From NCBI GenBank assembly GCA_933207985.1, contig OW240915.1, positions 122,260,251-122,324,250 on the forward strand: DNA of 64,000 bases, in the 5' to 3' direction. This document shows positions 41,789-64,000 of this stretch, piece after piece. Within the stretch, counting starts at the first letter, position 1. Every line of letters begins with the position of its first letter. The notes below the pieces were generated by a model. The model did not search any database, was not told the origin of the DNA, and was given only the letters and a program-made list of their open reading frames with translations. Source of the stretch: Pelobates cultripes. Taxonomy: Eukaryota > Chordata > Amphibia > Anura > Pelobatidae. The position numbers were made by a program, and so were the translations under genes.

Positions 41789-44001
41789 TATTTAACCTTT
41801 CAGACAAATTACTGACTGAAGCACATCTTAGTCTTCTTAGTAAAGGTTTAACGTTTATTCCTGTTAAAAAACCTCAGGCATTTTCTGTTGAAATTGATAT
41901 GTATAAATTACAACGCACTCTGTATGCTAATGAATACAGAAAAGAAAGCTCTACATATCAACCAAGTCCTTTTATCATCAAAGAGAAGAAAGATATTAAA
42001 TCTAATAATATGACTATCAAAACTTTTGTACAGACCATACACAAGGATGCGTTAAAGATTATAAAAAAAACATCCAAATACAGACCTAATTTAACTCCGG
42101 ATGAAAAAGCTGCACTCCAAGATCTTCGAGAAGATACTAATATTGTCATTCACCCTGCAGACAAGGGTGGAGGTGTTGTGATCCAATCTTATCAACAATA
42201 TAAATGTGAAATTATGCGTCAGTTGAATGACACATCTACATACCTGAGACTTACTTATGATCCTGTACAGTCATTCCAAAAAAAGATCCAGAAACTCATT
42301 GAAATTGGCTTACAAGCTGGTTATGTGGATTCAAATACAGCAAAGTACCTATATGTCACTCATCCTATACATCCGGTGTTATACACTTTACCTAAGATCC
42401 ACAAATCCAGTAAAAACCTGCGTGGATGACCCATAGTGTCGGCTAGGGGTGGTCTTTTAGAACCAATCGCCAAATACGTGGATTACTATTTACAAGTTTG
42501 TGTCAAAGAGTTACCATTTTGCCTTAGGGATACTCAGGATTTCCTTGATCAACTTAGAGATCTTGAAAAGGATACACAGCGCAAGTTTATATTTGCTACT
42601 TTGGATGTACAAAACCTATACACGGCAATACCCCAGGTAGAAGGTATAGAAGCCGTCCGGATGACGCTCTCCAAATCCTTGGTGTATAAAGGCCCGCCTA
42701 TTGAATTTATTTTAGAATTACTCACAATTGCATTGTCTTGTAATTATTTCAAATTTGAAGGCAACTTCTTTTTGCAAACATCAGGGAATGCTATGGGGGC
42801 GGCTATGGCTCCCTCATATGCTAACATCTTTATGTCATGGTTTGAACAACAATATATTTTTACAATATATGCGAAGAAAATATTAAAATATTTCCGATTT
42901 GTGGATGACATCCTTCTCTTGTGGACTACTTCACAGCAGGAATTAGAAGAAATGGTACAACAATTGAATATGCTACCGACTACAATAAAATTCACTCTGA
43001 ATTATAACTGTGATCAAATTCATTTTTTGGACATTCTATTATATAAGAAAACAGGCGAAATCGGTTATACCTTACATCGAAAAGAAACTGATAGAAACAC
43101 AATTTTATCAGCTACTAGTTTTCATCCTCAACATTTAAAGGACTCCCTCCCTATTTCGCAGTTCCTTAGAGTTCTACGCTATAATAGTGATATACCTCAA
43201 ATGAATCTTCAATTGGCTGAAATGAAGCAACGTTTTATTGATAGGGGTTATGCCCCACAAATATTGGATACTGCGGAACAGAGAGCTAGAGAACACATTT
43301 GTTCAGAGAAAAACATCAAATCTATAAAGACACAGCTTTTTCTACCTATGACTTACCATACAGCAACAGTAAAAATAAAAAACACTATACAAAGACATTG
43401 GGATATGATCCAAGCAGACAATAATCTTCCCTCAATTTTTCAACAACAACCTATGATCAGCTATAAAAGGAATCGAAACCTTAGGGACCTATTGGTCTGC
43501 AACGATCCAACACAATGTTACAAGAAAAAAACATGGATTATAAAGAAAGGCTGCTTTAAATGTACTGGATGTGTGACCTGTAGCCACATGCTAACTGGTA
43601 CCTCCTTTGCCCATCCGCATACGGGCAAACGAATACCGATCAGTCATCATATTACTTGTACCACAGACCATGTCATCTACATGGTGACTTGTCCATGTGG
43701 ACTATCTTATGTAGGCAAGACCGATCTCACTTTACGTGATAGGATCAGAGGACATCAATCTGGGATCATGACGGCATACCGTGACCATACTACTGAAAAA
43801 CCAGTGGCCAAACATTTTTTGGCTATGCAACACCATCTACCCACGCTTACATTTATCGGTATTGATCATGTTCCACCGCTGGATCGAGGGGGAGACAGAT
43901 CCAAAACTCTCTTACAGAGAGAGGCTTATTGGATCTATCATTTGGATACAGTAACCCCTAGAGGGTTAAATGAAAATATTGTGTACTCTATGTTTTTGTG
44001 A
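41785..44001 (+). pseudogene. Penelope-like RT and GIY-YIG endonuclease, one in-frame stop
   Basis: The frame starts NLSDKLLTEAHLSLLSKGLTF and runs through DLREDTNIVIHPADKGGGVV and LPKIHKSSKNLRG to a TGA at 42427-42429. It then continues in the same frame to 44001. Further motifs are PIVSARGGLLEP, LDVQNLYTAIPQVEG (42604-42648), the PLE hallmark QTSGNAMGAAMAPSYANIFM and the catalytic FRFVDDILLLW (VDD at 42901-42909). The endonuclease has KKGCFKCTGCVTCSHM (Cys-rich zinc site, near 43551), then VIYMVTCPCG and YVGKTDLTLRDRI (GIY-YIG core, about 43672-43745), and the closing LLQREAYWIYHLDT. A TGA in place of a likely CGA Arg codon is the only obvious lesion in 739 codons. Compared with the other five PLE copies in the window this is by far the best preserved. 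Confidence 0.92.
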
Positions 44002-46671: not shown

Positions 46672-47247
46672 ATATTGACACCTTGACATATGGATTGACA
46701 CCTGTCCTCAGAGACCCTGATACACACTGACACAGAGCAGAATAGGGACTGTTCCTCCTACATAGGGTCACTTGGCAGATATGGATTGACACCTGTCCTC
46801 AGGATCCCTGATACACACTGACACAGAGCAGAATAGGGACTGTTCCCTCCTACATAGGGTCACTTGGCAGATATGGATTGACACCTGTCCTCAGAGACCA
46901 TGATACACACTGACACAGAGCAGAATAGAGACTGTTCCCCTACATAGGGTCACTTGGCAGATATGGATTGACACCTGTCCTCAGAGACCATGATACACAC
47001 TGACACAGAGCAGAATAGAGACTGTTCCCCCTACATAGGGTCACTTGGCAGATATGGATTGACACCTGTCCTCAGAGACCATGATACACACTGACACAGA
47101 GCAGAATAGAGACTGTTCCCTCCTACATAGGGTCACTTGGCAGATATGGATTGACACCTGTCCTAAGGATCCCTGATACACACTGACACAGAGCAGAATA
47201 GGAACTGTTCCCCCTACATAGGGTCACTTGGCAGATATGGATTGACA
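46672..47247. repeat. Minisatellite, about 91-bp unit, six to seven copies
   Basis: GGCAGATATGGATTGACACC recurs with spacing of 90-92 bp (repeat points at 46776, 46868, 46958, 47049, 47141 and 47232). Each unit includes CTGATACACACTGACACAG and CATAGGGTCACTTGG. Units differ by small indels and substitutions. Confidence 0.9.
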
Positions 47248-48562
47248 CTGTCCACAAGGACAAGCTGCAGGCTTCCTGGCAGGGCCCATACAAGGTGGTA
47301 GAGCAGGTTTGTGATACCACCTTTGTGATCGGTGCGGTCACAGGCACGGGAGGCAAGCGCATGCTCCATGTGAACATGCTCAAGCCATACCACAAGCGCA
47401 CGGAAGAGGTAACCGCGATCTGTGCACCTGCCACTGAAGATTATGATAATTTGCCACTCCCAGATCTCCTAGACCTAGAGGGCCAGAGCGGAGACCTGGG
47501 AGAAGTACAGTTAGGAGAACAGTTAGACCCCCAGGAGCAAACCCAGGTCCAAAGACTAATCCAGGACAAGGGGGCCATGTTTTCCAACCTACCTGGGTAC
47601 AGTCCGTTAACCACTCACAAAGTTGAAACCATATACCAGACCCCCCCTCGCCAAACCGCCTATCGCATACCCGAAGCAGTTAAAGAAAATATTCAGAAAG
47701 AAATTGAGGAAATGATGCATTTAGGGGTGATAGAACACTATGACAGCCCCTGGGCCTCCCCGGTAGTACTAGTACCGAAACGGGACAGCACGACCCGTTT
47801 CTGTGTAGACTACCGGAGGCTAAACGATTAAAGAACCTCAGACGCCTACCCTATGCCCCGGATAGACGAGCTCCTAGACAAAATGGCCAGAGGCCAGTAC
47901 CTCACCACAATAGATCTGTGCAAGAGGTACTGGCAAATTCCATTAGCCGAGGACGCCATCCACAAGTCGGCATTTGTCACCTCGTTTGGCCTGTATTAGT
48001 TTAAGGTCATGCCATTCGGGATGAAGAATGCCCCGGCTAACTTTTAGAGGATGGTAGATCGGCTACTGGATGGGTTTCAGGAGTATGCCTGCACCTACTT
48101 AGATGATATAGCCATTTTTAGCTGCTCCTGGCCCGAACACCTGACCCACATAGGAGCCGTACTAGACCGGATTAGGGAGGCCGGACTGACCCTAAAGCCC
48201 AGTAAGTGCCATATAGGAATGCGTAAAAACCTCCCCAAGATAGTAGTATGGGCCCCAGAGTGTGAACAGGCCTTCCAACAGCTCAAGAGGGCGCTCATTA
48301 AATCACCTGTACTTTCTGCTCCTGATCCAACTAAACACTTTCTCGTCCATACAGACGCTTCTATGTTTGGATTGGGAGCAGTACTGAGCCAAGTTGGAGC
48401 AGATGGCGGCGAGCAACCCGGGGCTTATCTAAGCCGGAAATTTTTGCCCAGTGAAGTAGATACACTGCCATTGAAAAGGAGTGCCTGGCGGTGGTGTGGG
48501 CCCTCAAAAAGCTGCCACCTTACTTGTATGGACAACCGTTTACCTTACTCACAGATCACAAC
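47248..48562 (+). pseudogene. pol: Gmr1-like pol piece inside the hAT element
   Basis: It opens in the integrase C-terminal domain (KLQASWQGPYKVVEQVCDTT), passes the HVNMLKPYHKRTEEV linker and enters RT: FCVDYRRLND then a TAA (47829-47831), LTTIDLCKRYWQIPLAEDA, stops at 47998 and 48046, and YLDD at 48096-48107. After KCHIGM a deletion removes about 75 residues and joins to KNLPKIVVWAPECE. RNase H has HTDASMFGLGAVLSQ, then a frameshift near 48460, and stops abruptly at LLTDHN. No LTR, polypurine tract or target duplication is present at either end: the left end fuses to the 91-bp array and the right end to the 174-bp duplication. Confidence 0.9.
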
Positions 48563-48838: not shown

Positions 48839-49256
48839 CCGTTGATGTGGAGCAAGACGCAGCAGCAGAAGAGGACTCAGCCAAGGTGGTTATGGAAGAG
48901 GATGGAGTAGGAGGAGTAGAGGAGGTGGCAGCAGGCCTGCCTGCAAGTCGTGGCGGTGTCACCAACTCCTCTGCAGAGCCACGCATTCCATGCTTGGCAG
49001 CCGTCAGCAGGTTTGCCCAATGCGTAGTGTAGGTGATATACCTGCCCTGACCGTGCTTTGCAGACCAGGTATCAGTGGTCAGATGGACCCTTGCCCCAAC
49101 ACTGTGTGCCAGACATGCCATTATTTCCTTTTGCACAATCGAGTACAGGTTGGGGATTGCCTTTTGTGAAAATAAATTTTGTCCGGGTACCAGTGAGTGA
49201 GTGGTGGTACTGGGCACAGTATCCACTGTGAGCCTGACACATCCGCTGGCAGACAA
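48839..49256 (-). pseudogene. hAT transposase fragment
   Basis: The minus strand reads FSQKAIPNLYSIVQKEIMAC, then SVGARVHLTTDTWSAKHGQG and RYITYTTHWANLLT. This matches the hAT (ZBED-like) catalytic region around the first acidic residue in the LTTDTWS motif. The frame runs 146 codons, but the C-terminal third (EELVTPPRLAGRPAATSST) is Ser/Pro-rich and may be from the adjoining repeat. It is the next segment downstream of the transposase piece at 19030-19225, though from another copy. Confidence 0.75.
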
Positions 49257-50060
49257 CTAACTGCTATTCAATCTATAACAGTGAAAAAAGTTTTTTGTTT
49301 TTAAATGCAAGCTATTATGACACCAGATATGAGTGGCACTGTAAACTGGCAGAGTACACGCTGTAGGGCTGACACACCCGCTTTGAGACAACTAACTGCT
49401 ATTCAATCTATAACAGTGAAAAAAGGTTTTTTTTTTAAATGCAAGCTATTGTGACACAGTGAGTGAGTGGTGGCACTGGGCACAGTATCCACTGTGAGCC
49501 TGACACACCCGCTTTGAGACAACTAACTGCCATTCAATCTATAACAGTGAAAAAGGTTTTTTGGTTTTAAATGCAAGCTATTGTGACACCAGTGAGTGAG
49601 TGGTGGCACTGGGCACAGCATCCACTGTGAGCCTGACACAGACGTTGGCAGACAACTAACTGCTATTCAATCTATAACAGTGAAAAAAGTTTTTTGGTTT
49701 TAAATGCAAGCTATTGTGACACAGTGAGTGAGTGGTGGCACTGGGCACAGTATCCACTGTGAGCCTGACACACCCGCTTTGAGACAACTAACTGCTATTC
49801 AATCTATAACAGTGAAAAAAGTTTTTGGGTTTTTAAATGCAGCTATTGTGACACCAGTGAGTGAGTGGTGGCACTGGGCACAGTATCCACTGTGAGCCTG
49901 ACACAGACGCTGGCAGACAACTAACTGCTATTCAATCTATAACAGTGAAAAAAGTTTTTGGGTTTTTAAATGCATGCTATTGTGACACCAGTGAGTGAGT
50001 GGTGGCACTGGGCACAGTATCCACTGTGAGCCTGACACAGAAGCTGGCAGGCAGGCAACT
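49191..50060. repeat. Tandem array, about 133-bp unit, seven copies
   Basis: CAGTGAGTGAGTGGTGGCAC recurs at 49457, 49590, 49722, 49855 and 49989 (spacing 132-134), with a variant second unit near 49321. Each unit ends in a T-run and AAATGCAAGCTATTGTGACAC. It overlaps the start of the transposase fragment. Confidence 0.9.
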
Positions 50061-60753: not shown

Positions 60754-61525
60754 TGTAACGGCTACCCAGCTGGTGAGGGGTACCTGCCATTGGAGACGTC
60801 CTTTTCTAGGCAAGCTGCTGTGAAGTAATGGAATTCTTATTCCCATCCACAATATCCAATTGTATAATCCAGGAGTGCTGTAAAATCAGGCAGAGTAACA
60901 GTACCATAAATCCCCTCCAAGAACGAGACGAGGCTACTTTTTGAAGGGTCAAGTAGAACTGATGTTTATTGACAGGGGGTCTCCTTTTATGCAATCTTGC
61001 CCTCTGAAAGGCTACACCCACATAATTACTACAACAGCCAATTACATACATGGTTCAACCCCCACGTCTCCTCCCCTCAGATAACATGTAACACAATTAA
61101 AACAGACACAATTTTAACTACATTCTGGATGTACCCCAAAACCAGGGGGTACACCTTTAAGTACAGCACTTAATAGCTCTCACTCAGGGGAACAATATAT
61201 CCAAATTTGAGGTCATTCGGTTGAGGGGTTCGGGAGTTCGGGTTCGGGAGTTATGGGTCTTTGAAGTTTTGACCGACCGCACAGGTTTTCCAGCCGAAAA
61301 GAGTTCCATAAGTTTTGGCCTTGCGGTGGGTCTCCGTTCGTGCATAAAAACCCCACAAACCCCTTGCCATCCACAGTAATCCTGGTGTTCACCTGAATCC
61401 CCATGACTGCTTAAACAAAACTACCGAACGGCCGGTCGTTCGGTAGTTCCAGCACGAACTTACGAGCTCCTGGAGGTCTCAGCGGTGTTCGCCTGTTTTT
61501 AGTTCCATGCGTTGAAGGAATATTG
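60754..61525 (-). mobile_element. LTR, minus orientation, U3 end missing
   Basis: The plus-strand left end is TGTAACGGCTACCC. On the minus strand it has GCATAAAAGG and TCAATAAACATC, a TATA-like and poly-A signal pair, and the TACTTTTTGAAGGGTCAAG segment matches R of the other LTRs. AGCGGTGTTCG at 61481 is one arm of the shared U3 palindrome; the second arm is missing because the LTR breaks off near 61525. Confidence 0.75.
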
Positions 61526-61526
61526 A

Positions 61527-61589
61527 CCCCTTAAGGACACATGACATGTCATGATTCCCTTTTATTCCAGAAATTTGGTCTTTAAGGGG
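61527..61589. mobile_element. 63-bp MITE with CCCCTTAAGGAC ends
   Basis: Ends CCCCTTAAGGAC and GTCTTTAAGGGG are inverted repeats, flanked by TTGA (61523-61526) and TTAA (61590-61593). It has the same ends as the 2.1-kb element at 24085-26174 and is the shortest form in this window. The centre contains the palindrome CATGACATGTCATG. Confidence 0.8.
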
Positions 61590-61604
61590 TTAAACAATTA
61601 ATCT

Positions 61605-62030
61605 GTCAGTATTGTATAAATTGAATTATTTTGTATATGTAGTAGCAAGCTCTTTTCAGAACTGCTTGCAAAACATAACTGAAAGGAAGTCACAAGCTAT
61701 GACAGTTTCTATGTATCAGGACATGCCTAACCACAATGTATATGTGATATTTTGTAAGATTAGATTATTGAATGTAACAGCAGAAACTACTTCCTCTTTT
61801 ATGTATCTTGTGTAACCTTTTTGTAACCTTTTGTAACCAATATTCGTGACAAATATTGTATAAGTACAGAGCATTTTGAATACATTGTCAGAAGATTATG
61901 GAAAGCAAAGAGTGTGTGTCTGGTTAATACGCTTCCATAAAAATCTTCCCTGAATATTCAGCTGACAATCGAGGGTTGGAGAATAGTGACCAGAGGGACC
62001 GAGTCACCAGATTAGCAGATTTACCTTTCA
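61605..62030 (+). mobile_element. Retrovirus-like LTR, 3' border at 62030, 5' border uncertain
   Basis: The right border is fixed by the primer binding site three bases after TTACCTTTCA. A TATA-like TGTATAAGTA is near 61857. CCTTTTTGTAACCTTTTGTAACC near 61819 is a short duplication. The left border could be any TG near 61605-61630. This sequence is unrelated to the gypsy LTRs in the window. Confidence 0.6.
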
Positions 62031-62033
62031 GCT

Positions 62034-62051
62034 TGGTGTCAGAAGTGGGAT
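62034..62051 (+). other. Primer binding site matching tRNA-Leu
   Basis: TGGTGTCAGAAGTGGGAT begins with the TGG that pairs with tRNA CCA and resembles the well-known tRNA-Leu primer binding site of vertebrate endogenous retroviruses. It begins three bases after the LTR end. Confidence 0.75.
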
Positions 62052-62067
62052 TGTAGCCAAAACCATT

Positions 62068-62080
62068 TTGGGTGAGTAGT
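62068..62080 (+). promoter_or_regulatory. Splice-donor-like site downstream of the primer binding site
   Basis: TTGGGTGAGTAGT contains GGTGAGT at 62071-62077, close to the consensus splice donor. A donor between primer binding site and packaging region is the usual retroviral layout. Confidence 0.5.
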
Positions 62081-62212
62081 AATTACTTGTGTCTATCTTG
62101 ACGCCCTGAATCTATGATCCCCATGGTTTTGTAAGTCTACATCATTTTAGGAAAGGTTATTTAGTATATGTGTTTTATGTGACTCAGTTTTACATAAGGT
62201 CCCGTTAAATTA

Positions 62213-62348
62213 GTCTAGTAAGGGAACTAGACAGAGAGACATATGTATTTCTAGTAAGTGAACTAGAGAAGGTCTAATAAGAGAATTAGACAGATAAAGT
62301 CTATAAAGTGATATAGACAGAGAATTTAGTATATACGTGAATATACTA
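62213..62348 (+). ncRNA. Five tandem covarying hairpins with a shared hexaloop
   Basis: Hairpin 1: GTCTAGT-AAGGGA-ACTAGAC (62213-62232). Hairpin 2: TCTAGT-AAGTGA-ACTAGA, extended by a G-U and an A-U pair (62248-62269). Hairpin 3: GTCTAAT-AAGAGA-ATTAGAC (62272-62291). Hairpin 4: GTCTATA-AAGTGA-TATAGAC (62299-62318). Hairpin 5: TAGTATAT-ACGTGA-ATATACTA (62327-62348). All stems are perfect for six to eight pairs although their sequences differ, and the loop is A, A or C, G, N, G, A in every case. The position, about 160 bases after a primer binding site, fits a retroviral leader RNA signal such as packaging. Confidence 0.85.
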
Positions 62349-64000
62349 CGATAGTGTGCACAGAGTTTCAGGTTCACCTTGTCCACCCTCTAATTGTCAT
62401 TAGTTAAGCCTGGTTGTGAGTGTGAATAAGTGTTTGAAAGATTTTTCCTAGGAATGGGAAATTACCATGCAAGAATATGAAGTAGTTAACTTTTCTTGTT
62501 CATATGTATTTTATGCTTAAATAAGGTTTATAATCATTAGTGCTGACTGTAAGGATATGAAATAGTTAAACTCTTTTTGCTTTATATGCTAACCCTGAAA
62601 ATATACTCACTGAGAATCTTGTTAAAGCACATTTGTAGTGTCCATGTCTTTATTGCAAACAATGATTCTCCATCAATTGGGTGATTGTCTATACTGGGGA
62701 CACACTTTAGTAAGTTAGTAGTGTGTCCACCCTGAGTCAGCAGTATGGGAAATGTGAGTTCAGGTCCTGAGTGACCAATATATATATGTATATAAGATAC
62801 CAATACTGTATATTAGAAAAGAACTGACTCGCAGGTTGTACCTGATAGACCTACTTAAATCTTTTGTTTTATTCTTTCTGTTGCATAGAAGGATAAGTTT
62901 ATTACTCTGTTTTATTGCAAGTTATTTCACATGGGATCTGTGTGCCTGGTATGATTGTTAATTTAATACCATAAGCCCACTACACTTTCTATGTGAGTGG
63001 AATAGTGTAAATGTGTTGCATTGTTTGCATGATGAGCTCAGTATTTTTATAACTGAGACAAAAAGTCACATCATTAGTATTTGAAAGTTAATTCCCCATA
63101 TGTGATTAATTGTATAGAAACACCAATCAGCACATCTTCCCTGCCCTGTGTGTTTGTTGCAAAGGATCCATACTGTTAATATGATTTTTGTTTGTAAATA
63201 AGAGCAACATTTACATTTTCAGCGGTCCAACACATGCTTCATTTTGCGCTGTAAACTAACCTTTTTTATTGCAACAGATTCCTTTTAAATGATCCAGTGT
63301 AATAACTACTGCATATGTTTTGTGTCTTCTATGTCCCACATTATATGTGTTCTGTTCTTTTAAATTGTGGTATATAGCCTAGATCAGAGATTATGGACAA
63401 AGGTTTCTACCTGTTTTACTAAGGCTCTTGGAGACTGACCGGTCTAAGGTTTGCCATGCCTTTTAAACATGGTATAGAATAATTTTTTTTTTAAGTCTCT
63501 GAGAGTTCTATAAGATTCTGGTGAAACCATTTCTGTGTAATCTGGTCCAAATGTTTGCTCAATTTCTATAAGATTTAAATTGATGCAGTATCATCTCAGA
63601 TTAGTTAATGGAAGTTTCATAAAAATATTTGAGTTATGAGCGCGCTATATAAATGGATCCTTTCTCTCTATATACAATACTATAGTAGATTAAAGTAATG
63701 AAGTTAATAAGAATTAAAAATAAATAAATAAATAAATAAATAAAAAGTATACATAAGAATCCCTAAAATAAATCTAATACAAACTGAAAATGGTATCCCT
63801 TACAATAATATGTTCTGAGTACAGCTGTTAACTGTTTATTCTGTGTAAATGGTGACTGTGATAATCTGTGAAGTGTGCAGCTGGAAAGTGGTTTAATTTA
63901 TATGTTGCTGTGTTGTTTTAAATTATATTTGAATCAGTTTGTCTCAGTCTAATGATACTGATAAAAATGCCAGTCAAATAACCCCATCAAATAACGGTTT
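62349..64000. other. Putative retroelement leader or unassigned DNA, no coding found
   Basis: AT-rich sequence without a recognisable gag or other retroviral motif up to the window edge. If it is an internal region, gag must lie beyond 64000 or has been lost. The microsatellite AAATAAATAAATAAATAAAT is at about 63718-63743. Confidence 0.4.

What the first reader, a model, noticed from the sequence alone, without database searches (positions are those of the whole stretch)
62213..62348. Five tandem hairpins with different stems but one hexaloop (A-A/C-G-N-G-A)
Within 136 bases there are five perfect stem-loops with six to eight pairs each. The stems change in sequence by paired substitutions (GTCTAGT, TCTAGT, GTCTAAT, GTCTATA, TAGTATAT), while the loop stays AAGGGA, AAGTGA, AAGAGA, AAGTGA, ACGTGA. 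Covariation with loop conservation between neighbouring units is strong evidence of selection on an RNA that presents the same loop five times. The array is about 160 bases downstream of a tRNA-Leu primer binding site and a splice-donor-like site, where retroviral packaging or dimerisation signals lie. I know of no described element with this repeated hexaloop. A Gag nucleocapsid or host RNA-binding protein reading A-N-G-N-G-A loops is an inference.
Basis: partly seen in the sequence, partly recalled or inferred. Interest (0 to 1): 0.95.

Follow-up and report, generated by a model that had tools for sequence, protein, structure and literature searches.

The report
Five-hairpin packaging array in endogenous retrovirus
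A recently copied endogenous retrovirus family in which no gag was found carries, after a predicted splice donor, five predicted RNA hairpins whose stems differ by paired changes while the loop stays AAGNGA in nearly all copies, and this array likely marks its RNA for packaging by the Gag protein of a related virus in the same genome.

Summary
Five perfect hexaloop hairpins lie at 62213-62348; none of 20,000 shuffles gave more than three. All seven stem pairs covary between units. In 39 of 40 copies read, unit 5 has loop AAGTGA; the window's ACGTGA is private, so the family motif is AAGNGA.

The array lies between a conserved splice-donor motif and a gag-start remnant, in a young LTR element: TGCGT target duplication, LTRs differing at 3 of 491 aligned bases, 55 exact copies of a 39-base array segment. 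No gag was found in this copy or in 3-kb pieces of 20 others, so the family is probably copied in trans.

Gag-coding sister families carry a different series of six to seven small hairpins at the same place, mostly followed by [AC]GG. In the two nucleocapsids read there is one zinc knuckle.

I read it as a modular Gag-binding packaging array: anatomy and covariation shown, folding predicted, function inferred. Closest known: the MLV GACG hairpin pair. A new variant of a known kind; no match in Rfam, none in the paper listings seen.

The parts
61508..61512 (+). Target-site duplication TGCGT (5' copy); the 3' copy follows the 3' LTR at L355:2455-2459, beyond the window
61513..62030 (+). 5' LTR, TGAAGG...TTTCA, 518 bp; 3' LTR at G000:C4:122332214-122332704 (L355:1964-2454), 3 substitutions in 491 aligned columns, 27 gap columns
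62034..62051 (+). Primer binding site TGGTGTCAGAAGTGGGAT (tRNA-Leu type; the tRNA assignment is recalled, not computed)
   Evidence: identical in 25 of 40 copies; 9 have one extra A and 6 other changes
62070..62077 (+). Splice-donor motif GG|GTGAGT, predicted; present in 40 of 40 copies, one of them as GGTAAGT
62213..62232 (+). Hairpin unit 1, GTCTAGT-AAGGGA-ACTAGAC
62250..62267 (+). Hairpin unit 2, TCTAGT-AAGTGA-ACTAGA (stem can extend by a U-G and a U-A pair)
62272..62291 (+). Hairpin unit 3, GTCTAAT-AAGAGA-ATTAGAC; seven copies carry a pair-preserving U-G here
62299..62318 (+). Hairpin unit 4, GTCTATA-AAGTGA-TATAGAC
62327..62348 (+). Hairpin unit 5, TAGTATAT-ACGTGA-ATATACTA; loop AAGTGA in 39 of 40 copies
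62600..62676 (+). Piece resembling sequence just upstream of the PBS (LTR) in one family B copy (77%), and in family 2 copies, marking a composite leader
62745..62774 (+). Gag-start remnant, ATGGGAAAT... nine codons and then TGA; the stretch around it aligns with the gag start of sister loci
62682..64000 (+). Body in which no gag was found; 93-94% identical to one family B copy over 62682-62793 and 62794-63239; body stretches matched in 20 of 20 other copies sampled

Best explanation
The five hairpins are a covarying leader array, predicted to fold in the RNA, of an endogenous retrovirus family in which no gag was found, and they likely act as repeated landing sites by which Gag, through its nucleocapsid zinc knuckle, would select the unspliced RNA for packaging. 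Shown by sequence: the paired changes between units, the near-fixed AAGNGA loop across copies, the position between a splice-donor motif and a gag-start remnant, the recent multiplication of the family, and gag-coding sister families with a different hairpin series at the same place. Inferred: that the hairpins form in the RNA; that the RNA is packaged in trans by a sister-type Gag; that the G-N-G of each loop is what the zinc knuckle grips; that several weak sites give avidity; that only unspliced RNA carries the array because it lies downstream of the donor.
For: Structure and covariation. Between units 14 of 14 stem columns vary while 5 of 6 loop columns do not. 194 of 200 units in 40 copies keep all pairs and AAGNGA; 34 of 40 copies keep all five. 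Diversity among copies 0.0084 in the array against 0.0138-0.0289 in the five other stretches averaged. Complete, young LTR insertion with TSD and PPT, with no gag found in this copy or in 20 others sampled, so what is kept should be cis-acting. Splice-donor motif in 40 of 40 copies. Leaders of gag-coding sisters (families A, B and 2) have six to seven tandem hairpins at the same position. In the two sister nucleocapsids read there is one CCHC-type knuckle. Literature: HIV-1 nucleocapsid knuckles grip the two G of G-N-G in the GGAG and GGUG loops; MLV nucleocapsid, with one knuckle, grips an exposed G in a linker beside a hairpin (PMC7599994, passages).
Against: No binding, probing or packaging data. 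Sister families do not share the loop, so no second lineage confirms AAGNGA. No gag-coding element with the AAGNGA array was found among the copies sampled, so the partner is a guess. Isolated MLV hairpins do not bind MLV nucleocapsid (PMC7599994). The array is low but not lowest in diversity: 108 of 974 windows of its size, itself included, are as low or lower. The whole leader fold is unexceptional (z -1.83). In the sister arrays covariation is thin: 2 of 40 pairs change on both sides (26 of 500 shuffles reach it), further pair types are no more than in shuffles (500 of 500), fold energies are only moderately low (z -2.07 to -2.24), and the minimum-energy folds merge sister hairpins 4 and 5.
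Confidence: 0.55

Rival explanations
1. The array binds a host RNA-binding protein for export, stability or translation of unspliced RNA, and not Gag.
For: Same anatomy: an iterated loop in the leader, downstream of the donor motif. A co-opted retroviral RNA element that controls gene expression is reported (PMC8579622, search listing and start of abstract only).
Against: No gag to translate was found in the family, and the array sits where packaging signals lie. Loops differ between sister families, which a fixed host protein would not favour.
Confidence: 0.2
2. Dimer linkage: the hairpins join two genomes through loop-loop or stem-stem pairing, as the MLV GACG pair does.
For: The stems are near-palindromes and could form extended duplexes; the MLV GACG loops join RNAs (PMC5874298, passages).
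Against: AAGNGA is not self-complementary, so loop kissing is unlikely (sequence). Stem sequence is free to change while the loop is fixed, the reverse of a stem-based dimer site.
Confidence: 0.12
3. Mutational origin without selection: tandem duplication plus template switching that perfects inverted repeats, so that arms change together.
For: Units 1, 3 and 4 are tandem duplicates. Between units no pair is changed on one side only, and only one cell is a U-G, as arm copying would give.
Against: It does not explain why 5 of 6 loop columns stay fixed while all 14 stem columns vary, nor why unit 5 with an unrelated stem has the same loop, nor a second hairpin series of other sequence at the same site in sisters.
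Confidence: 0.1
4. Passenger: the array is carried along in a successful recombinant leader and does nothing now.
For: The family is young (3 of 491 LTR differences), so conservation among copies may reflect recency; the leader is a composite.
Against: The between-unit covariation is shared by the 40 copies read, apart from a few damaged units, and so predates their spread; array diversity is below that of the flanking stretches averaged.
Confidence: 0.1

Closest known systems
GACG hairpin pair (SL-C, SL-D) of the murine leukemia virus packaging signal
   Same: Neighbouring hairpins with the same loop in the leader of a class I retrovirus (PMC5874298, passages); position downstream of the splice donor is recalled
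   Different: Two hairpins and a GACG tetraloop engaged in loop-loop contacts; here five hairpins and an AAGNGA hexaloop that is not self-complementary
HIV-1 SL2 and SL3 loops read by nucleocapsid
   Same: A G-N-G presented in a hairpin loop (GGUG, GGAG) (PMC7599994, passages)
   Different: Tetraloops, one hairpin each, and a two-knuckle nucleocapsid; the sister nucleocapsids read here have one knuckle
MLV UCUG linker site beside hairpins
   Same: A G next to a hairpin read by a one-knuckle nucleocapsid (PMC7599994, passages); compare the hairpin-[AC]GG units of the sister families
   Different: In the window family the repeated G motif is in the loop, not in the linker
UUYYGU hexaloop hairpins of coronavirus SL5
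   Same: Related hexaloops on several neighbouring stems (PMC10705266, start of abstract in listing)
   Different: Another virus group, another loop, branched and not tandem
Frog ERVs of class III: XtERV-S and a leucine-PBS relative in the African bullfrog
   Same: Frog ERV with a leucine primer binding site (PMC8278194, passages and section 10)
   Different: ERV-L-like gag-pol; the word packaging does not occur in the text. The sister pol here matches gamma-type enzymes
VL30-type non-autonomous retroviral elements
   Same: A family thought to be mobilised by proteins of other viruses (PMC4859993, search listing; details recalled)
   Different: No repeated-loop array is recalled for them

Membership tests
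Retroviral LTR element | LTR pair with TG...CA ends, target duplication, PBS, PPT | tested here: met
Class I (gamma-like) retrovirus | Gag, in-frame TAG, gamma-like RT and RNase H, class I Env | tested here: inconclusive
   In sisters: Gag then TAG with the frame going on into protease (family A); RT and RNase H pieces (family 2) match XMRV/MLV-type entries, the RT piece also Pr125Pol entries (which virus the p80 entries come from is partly recalled). Window copy: only an Env piece, TLV_coat E 2.7e-8
Class III / ERV-L (often tRNA-Leu, recalled) | ERV-L-type gag-pol | tested here: inconclusive
   Leu-type PBS present; sister RNase H matches XMRV/MLV-type entries best; no ERV-L sequence was compared
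Retroviral packaging signal | Stable predicted hairpins between splice donor and gag start | tested here: met
   donor is a motif, gag start a remnant
Retroviral packaging signal | Needed and sufficient for packaging; binds Gag or NC | not testable with these tools
   no experiment
MLV GACG hairpin pair | GACG tetraloops | tested here: not met
   loops are AAGNGA hexaloops
Any Rfam family | Match at the gathering score | tested here: not met
   0 matches in the 64-kb window
Iron-responsive element (recalled definition) | CAGUGN hexaloop and a bulged C in the stem | tested here: not met
   first loop base A, no bulge, two of five family loops lack GUG

The most novel reading that the evidence does not exclude
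Retroviral packaging in this lineage is written as a modular, countable array: five hairpins each present one G-N-G loop as a Gag docking unit, stems are free as long as they pair, and related viruses in the same genome have a wholly different seven-hairpin array with hairpin-[AC]GG units at the same spot. Packaging specificity would then evolve by exchange of whole arrays, letting a gag-less element hijack another virus's particles.
Probability: 0.4. Interest if true: 0.85.

Novelty: new variant of a known kind. Interest (0 to 1): 0.72.

Why it matters
How Gag picks its genome is understood in few retroviruses, mostly from leaders in which sites are embedded in complex folds (my own knowledge). 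Here nature offers five near-equal copies of one candidate site in 136 bases, with natural variants, and sister families in the same genome with another array at the same place. That makes the questions of valency (how many sites are needed), of loop against linker recognition, and of how parasitic elements capture a helper virus's particles directly testable on short synthetic RNAs.

Tried and rejected
Chance hairpins: rejected. DNA-level inverted repeats for a DNA-binding protein: rejected by reasoning, because such sites keep the arms and free the spacer, whereas here the spacer is fixed and the arms vary. Simple repeat: the other clusters of hexaloop hairpins in the window are mostly (TA)n runs. 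Iron-responsive element: not met. Descent of the array from the sister array: local alignment not above block-shuffled controls (230 of 500 and 439 of 500 as good), so I treat the two arrays as unrelated in sequence.

In the own genome the three-loop pattern has 517 + 573 matches, fewer than its backwards control (2042 + 1870); only the first places were listed (contig C1 and one of C2), and among those the matches with hairpin arms are this family by my reading, the rest other sequence, much of it G-rich repeats. The 20 Gag_p30 loci fetched show no TGGTGTCAG and no ANGNGA hairpin of stem 5 or more on either strand (one search had scanned one strand only), but they hold about 1.5 kb on each side and may miss the leader. 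L417 is LINE-like by my reading. The Env search of the genome did not complete.

Shared against private variants, counted by hand: 0 of 5 variants found in two or more copies damages a stem or loop, 6 of 13 private ones do; too few to claim.

Rows dropped: L398 was left out of alignment A3 because its leader reads N, so six of seven family-2 loci were used; 22 of 40 copies were left out of A1 as duplicates of the 18 distinct arrays.

Full report
The observation. The window holds five perfect hairpins with six-base loops at 62213-62348, as described. They are the minimum-energy fold of the stretch (z -4.98, 0 of 200 shuffles as good) and keep high pairing probability in the longer leader, unit 5 least (0.64-0.69). 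The whole leader fold is unexceptional (z -1.83). In 20,000 dinucleotide shuffles of the stretch none had four or more such hairpins and one had three. A looser count (stems of five or more, loops of three to nine) is less extreme: 1 of 2,000 shuffles reached five. Aligned as units of 20 bases, all 7 pairs change on both sides somewhere, all 35 cells are standard pairs, and 0 of 500 shuffles reach any of the five measures. Units 1, 3 and 4 are tandem duplicates at 81%, but they too differ by paired changes.

What it belongs to. The window lies in a 3.09-Gb genome. The hairpins are in the leader of an LTR element whose 5' LTR is 61513-62030. Its 3' LTR lies about 10 kb on, beyond the window, after a purine tract AAAGAGGGGAAAA, and both ends carry the duplication TGCGT. 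The LTRs differ at 3 of 491 aligned bases, with 27 gap columns, so the insertion is recent. The primer binding site is of tRNA-Leu type (assignment recalled); 25 of 40 copies have it unchanged. A splice-donor motif GG|GTGAGT at 62070-62077 is in 40 of 40 copies, one as GGTAAGT. The array starts about 140 bases after it.

Copies. The leader query had 127 candidates, of which 40 were scored; all 40 matched, at 96-100%, and I read these 40, the window's own included. An exact 39-base stretch of the array occurs 55 times (25 + 30). In 39 of 40 copies unit 5 has the loop AAGTGA; the window's ACGTGA is private. Thus the family loops are AAGGGA, AAGTGA, AAGAGA, AAGTGA, AAGTGA. 194 of 200 units keep all pairs and AAGNGA, and 34 of 40 copies keep all five. 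Between units all 14 stem columns vary, while 5 of 6 loop columns do not. Mean diversity among copies is 0.0084 in the array against 0.0138-0.0289 in the five other stretches averaged; it is low but not lowest (108 of 974 windows are at or below it, itself included).

The body. tblastn with two sister Gag pieces found no gag in window 61000-64000, in the 9 kb that follow in this copy, or in 3-kb pieces from 20 other copies. All 20 pieces match the window's 62700-64000, and 19 of 20 also match the next 3 kb of this copy. Of seven interior open stretches scanned with Pfam, one matches above its cut-off, an Env piece (TLV_coat, E 2.7e-8). So the family probably spreads with proteins made elsewhere, and what its leader keeps should be cis-acting.

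Sister families. A pattern for the same PBS with another following base found 16 places. Seven of them (family 2: L397, L398, L400, L401, L402, L407, L410) share the LTR end, PBS and donor region at 75-78% with the window. Two read a Gag that begins MGNNQS, and downstream of L401 Pfam finds a zinc knuckle, protease, RT and RNase H. A search with a Gag piece of L401 gave 868 candidates, 150 scored. Among them are matches at 90-93% in open frames of 622-628 aa (family A) and a large group at about 70-75%, most of which have one TGA and one TAA (family B). I read one leader each of A (L414) and B (L416; taken as one element with the gag match 2 kb on). In the family A copy a TAG separates Gag from the frame that continues towards protease, and between capsid and that stop there is one CCHC knuckle, CFNCGQHGHWRNEC; in L413 its last C reads G (Pfam zf-CCHC E 1.3e-5). 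The RNase H piece matches XMRV/MLV-type solved structures best; the RT piece matches p80 entries of that type and Pr125Pol entries (virus names of these entries partly recalled).

A second array at the same place. From about +140 to +323 after the PBS, families 2, A and B carry six to seven small hairpins in a row: in L414 GAGAC..GTCTC, TTAGAC..GTCTAA, GGGTT..AACCC, GTATCTA..TAGATAC, GTATCT..AGATAC, GAGACT..AGTCTC, GTGTTC..GAACAC. In each of the three leaders compared (L414, L416, L401) five of seven are followed by [AC]GG, one by GGTT and one by neither. Such counts of hairpins are rare in shuffles (A 0, B 0, L401 2 of 2,000), but the fold energies are only moderately low (z -2.07 to -2.24), and the minimum-energy folds merge hairpins 4 and 5 into one. 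Across eight leaders 99% of cells pair; of 40 pairs 32 never vary, 3 vary on one side, 3 depart only by unpaired cells and 2 change on both sides. That last number is reached by 26 of 500 shuffles, the number of pair types by 500 of 500, the other three measures by 3 of 500, so covariation here is weak. One unit is missing in L400 and one arm in L407 and L410, so the series varies. The two arrays are not alignable above shuffles, although the PBS-donor segment upstream is. The family B copy shares the window family's body (93-94%; L415) but has the second type of array. The window leader at 62600-62676 resembles sequence just before the PBS of that copy, thus its LTR (77%), and of family 2. 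I infer that the window family is a recombinant: an LTR and leader with the AAGNGA array joined to a B-type body.

Mechanism. Zinc knuckles of retroviral nucleocapsid grip exposed G: in HIV-1 the two G of G-N-G in the GGAG and GGUG loops, in MLV, which has one knuckle, a G in the UCUG linker beside a hairpin (PMC7599994, passages). The AAGNGA array offers a G-N-G in each of five loops, and the sister arrays offer a G pair at the foot of most hairpins. I propose that both are packaging arrays with repeated Gag docking sites, downstream of the donor so that only unspliced RNA has them. This function is inferred. Against it stand the lack of any experiment, the lack of a gag-coding partner with the same loop among the copies read, and the report that isolated MLV hairpins do not bind MLV nucleocapsid. 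A host protein, dimerisation or a mutational origin are rivals.

Novelty. No Rfam family matches in the window at its gathering score. Nine literature searches of a PMC library were answered; no title or opening abstract in the listings describes an iterated AAGNGA hairpin in a retroviral leader. That library lacks most subscription journals. A frog ERV with a leucine PBS is reported, of class III (PMC8278194, passages and section 10). Repeated loops in a leader are known from the MLV GACG pair (PMC5874298, passages), so this is a new variant of a known kind.

I rescanned the 20 Gag_p30 loci on both strands and the PBS tallies, corrected the tally of sister pairs, the PBS count and the class III row, and added the sister fold results that weaken the parallel.

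Noticed in passing
G000, e.g. C1:301170436-301171032: A very large Gag_p30 expansion: 2,527 candidates, 150 scored, many with the same score (167.3 bits) and often in frames of 649 aa, which suggests a massive recent retroviral burst.
   Followed up: partly
G000:C4:138649273-138649767 and C9:106290766-106291158: Sister-type gag matches that lie in open frames of 2,843 and 1,500 aa without a stop, unlike the 622-628 aa of others; a gag-pol fusion or a captured gene.
   Followed up: no
G000, e.g. C1:74392574-74393092: Many copies of family B gag list one TGA and one TAA inside, as if an already broken gag had been multiplied; whether the stops are at the same place was not checked.
   Followed up: partly
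61513-61891: U3 seems exchanged between subfamilies while U5, PBS and the array are kept: matches to the window LTR start at about 61513 in most copies but only at 61787, 61843, 61879 or 61891 in others.
   Followed up: partly
61523-61593: An inverted repeat with TTGA and TTAA at its ends lies inside the LTR and looks like a small DNA transposon captured by U3.
   Followed up: no
46688-47253 and 49191-50039: Long tandem repeats with periods 91/183 and 133/265.
   Followed up: no
42430-44001: A 523-aa open frame that by eye resembles a Penelope-type reverse transcriptase with a GIY-YIG end; not scanned.
   Followed up: no
L402:2505-3020: Gag of this family-2 copy is interrupted by what by eye looks like a Tc1/mariner transposase.
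   Followed up: no
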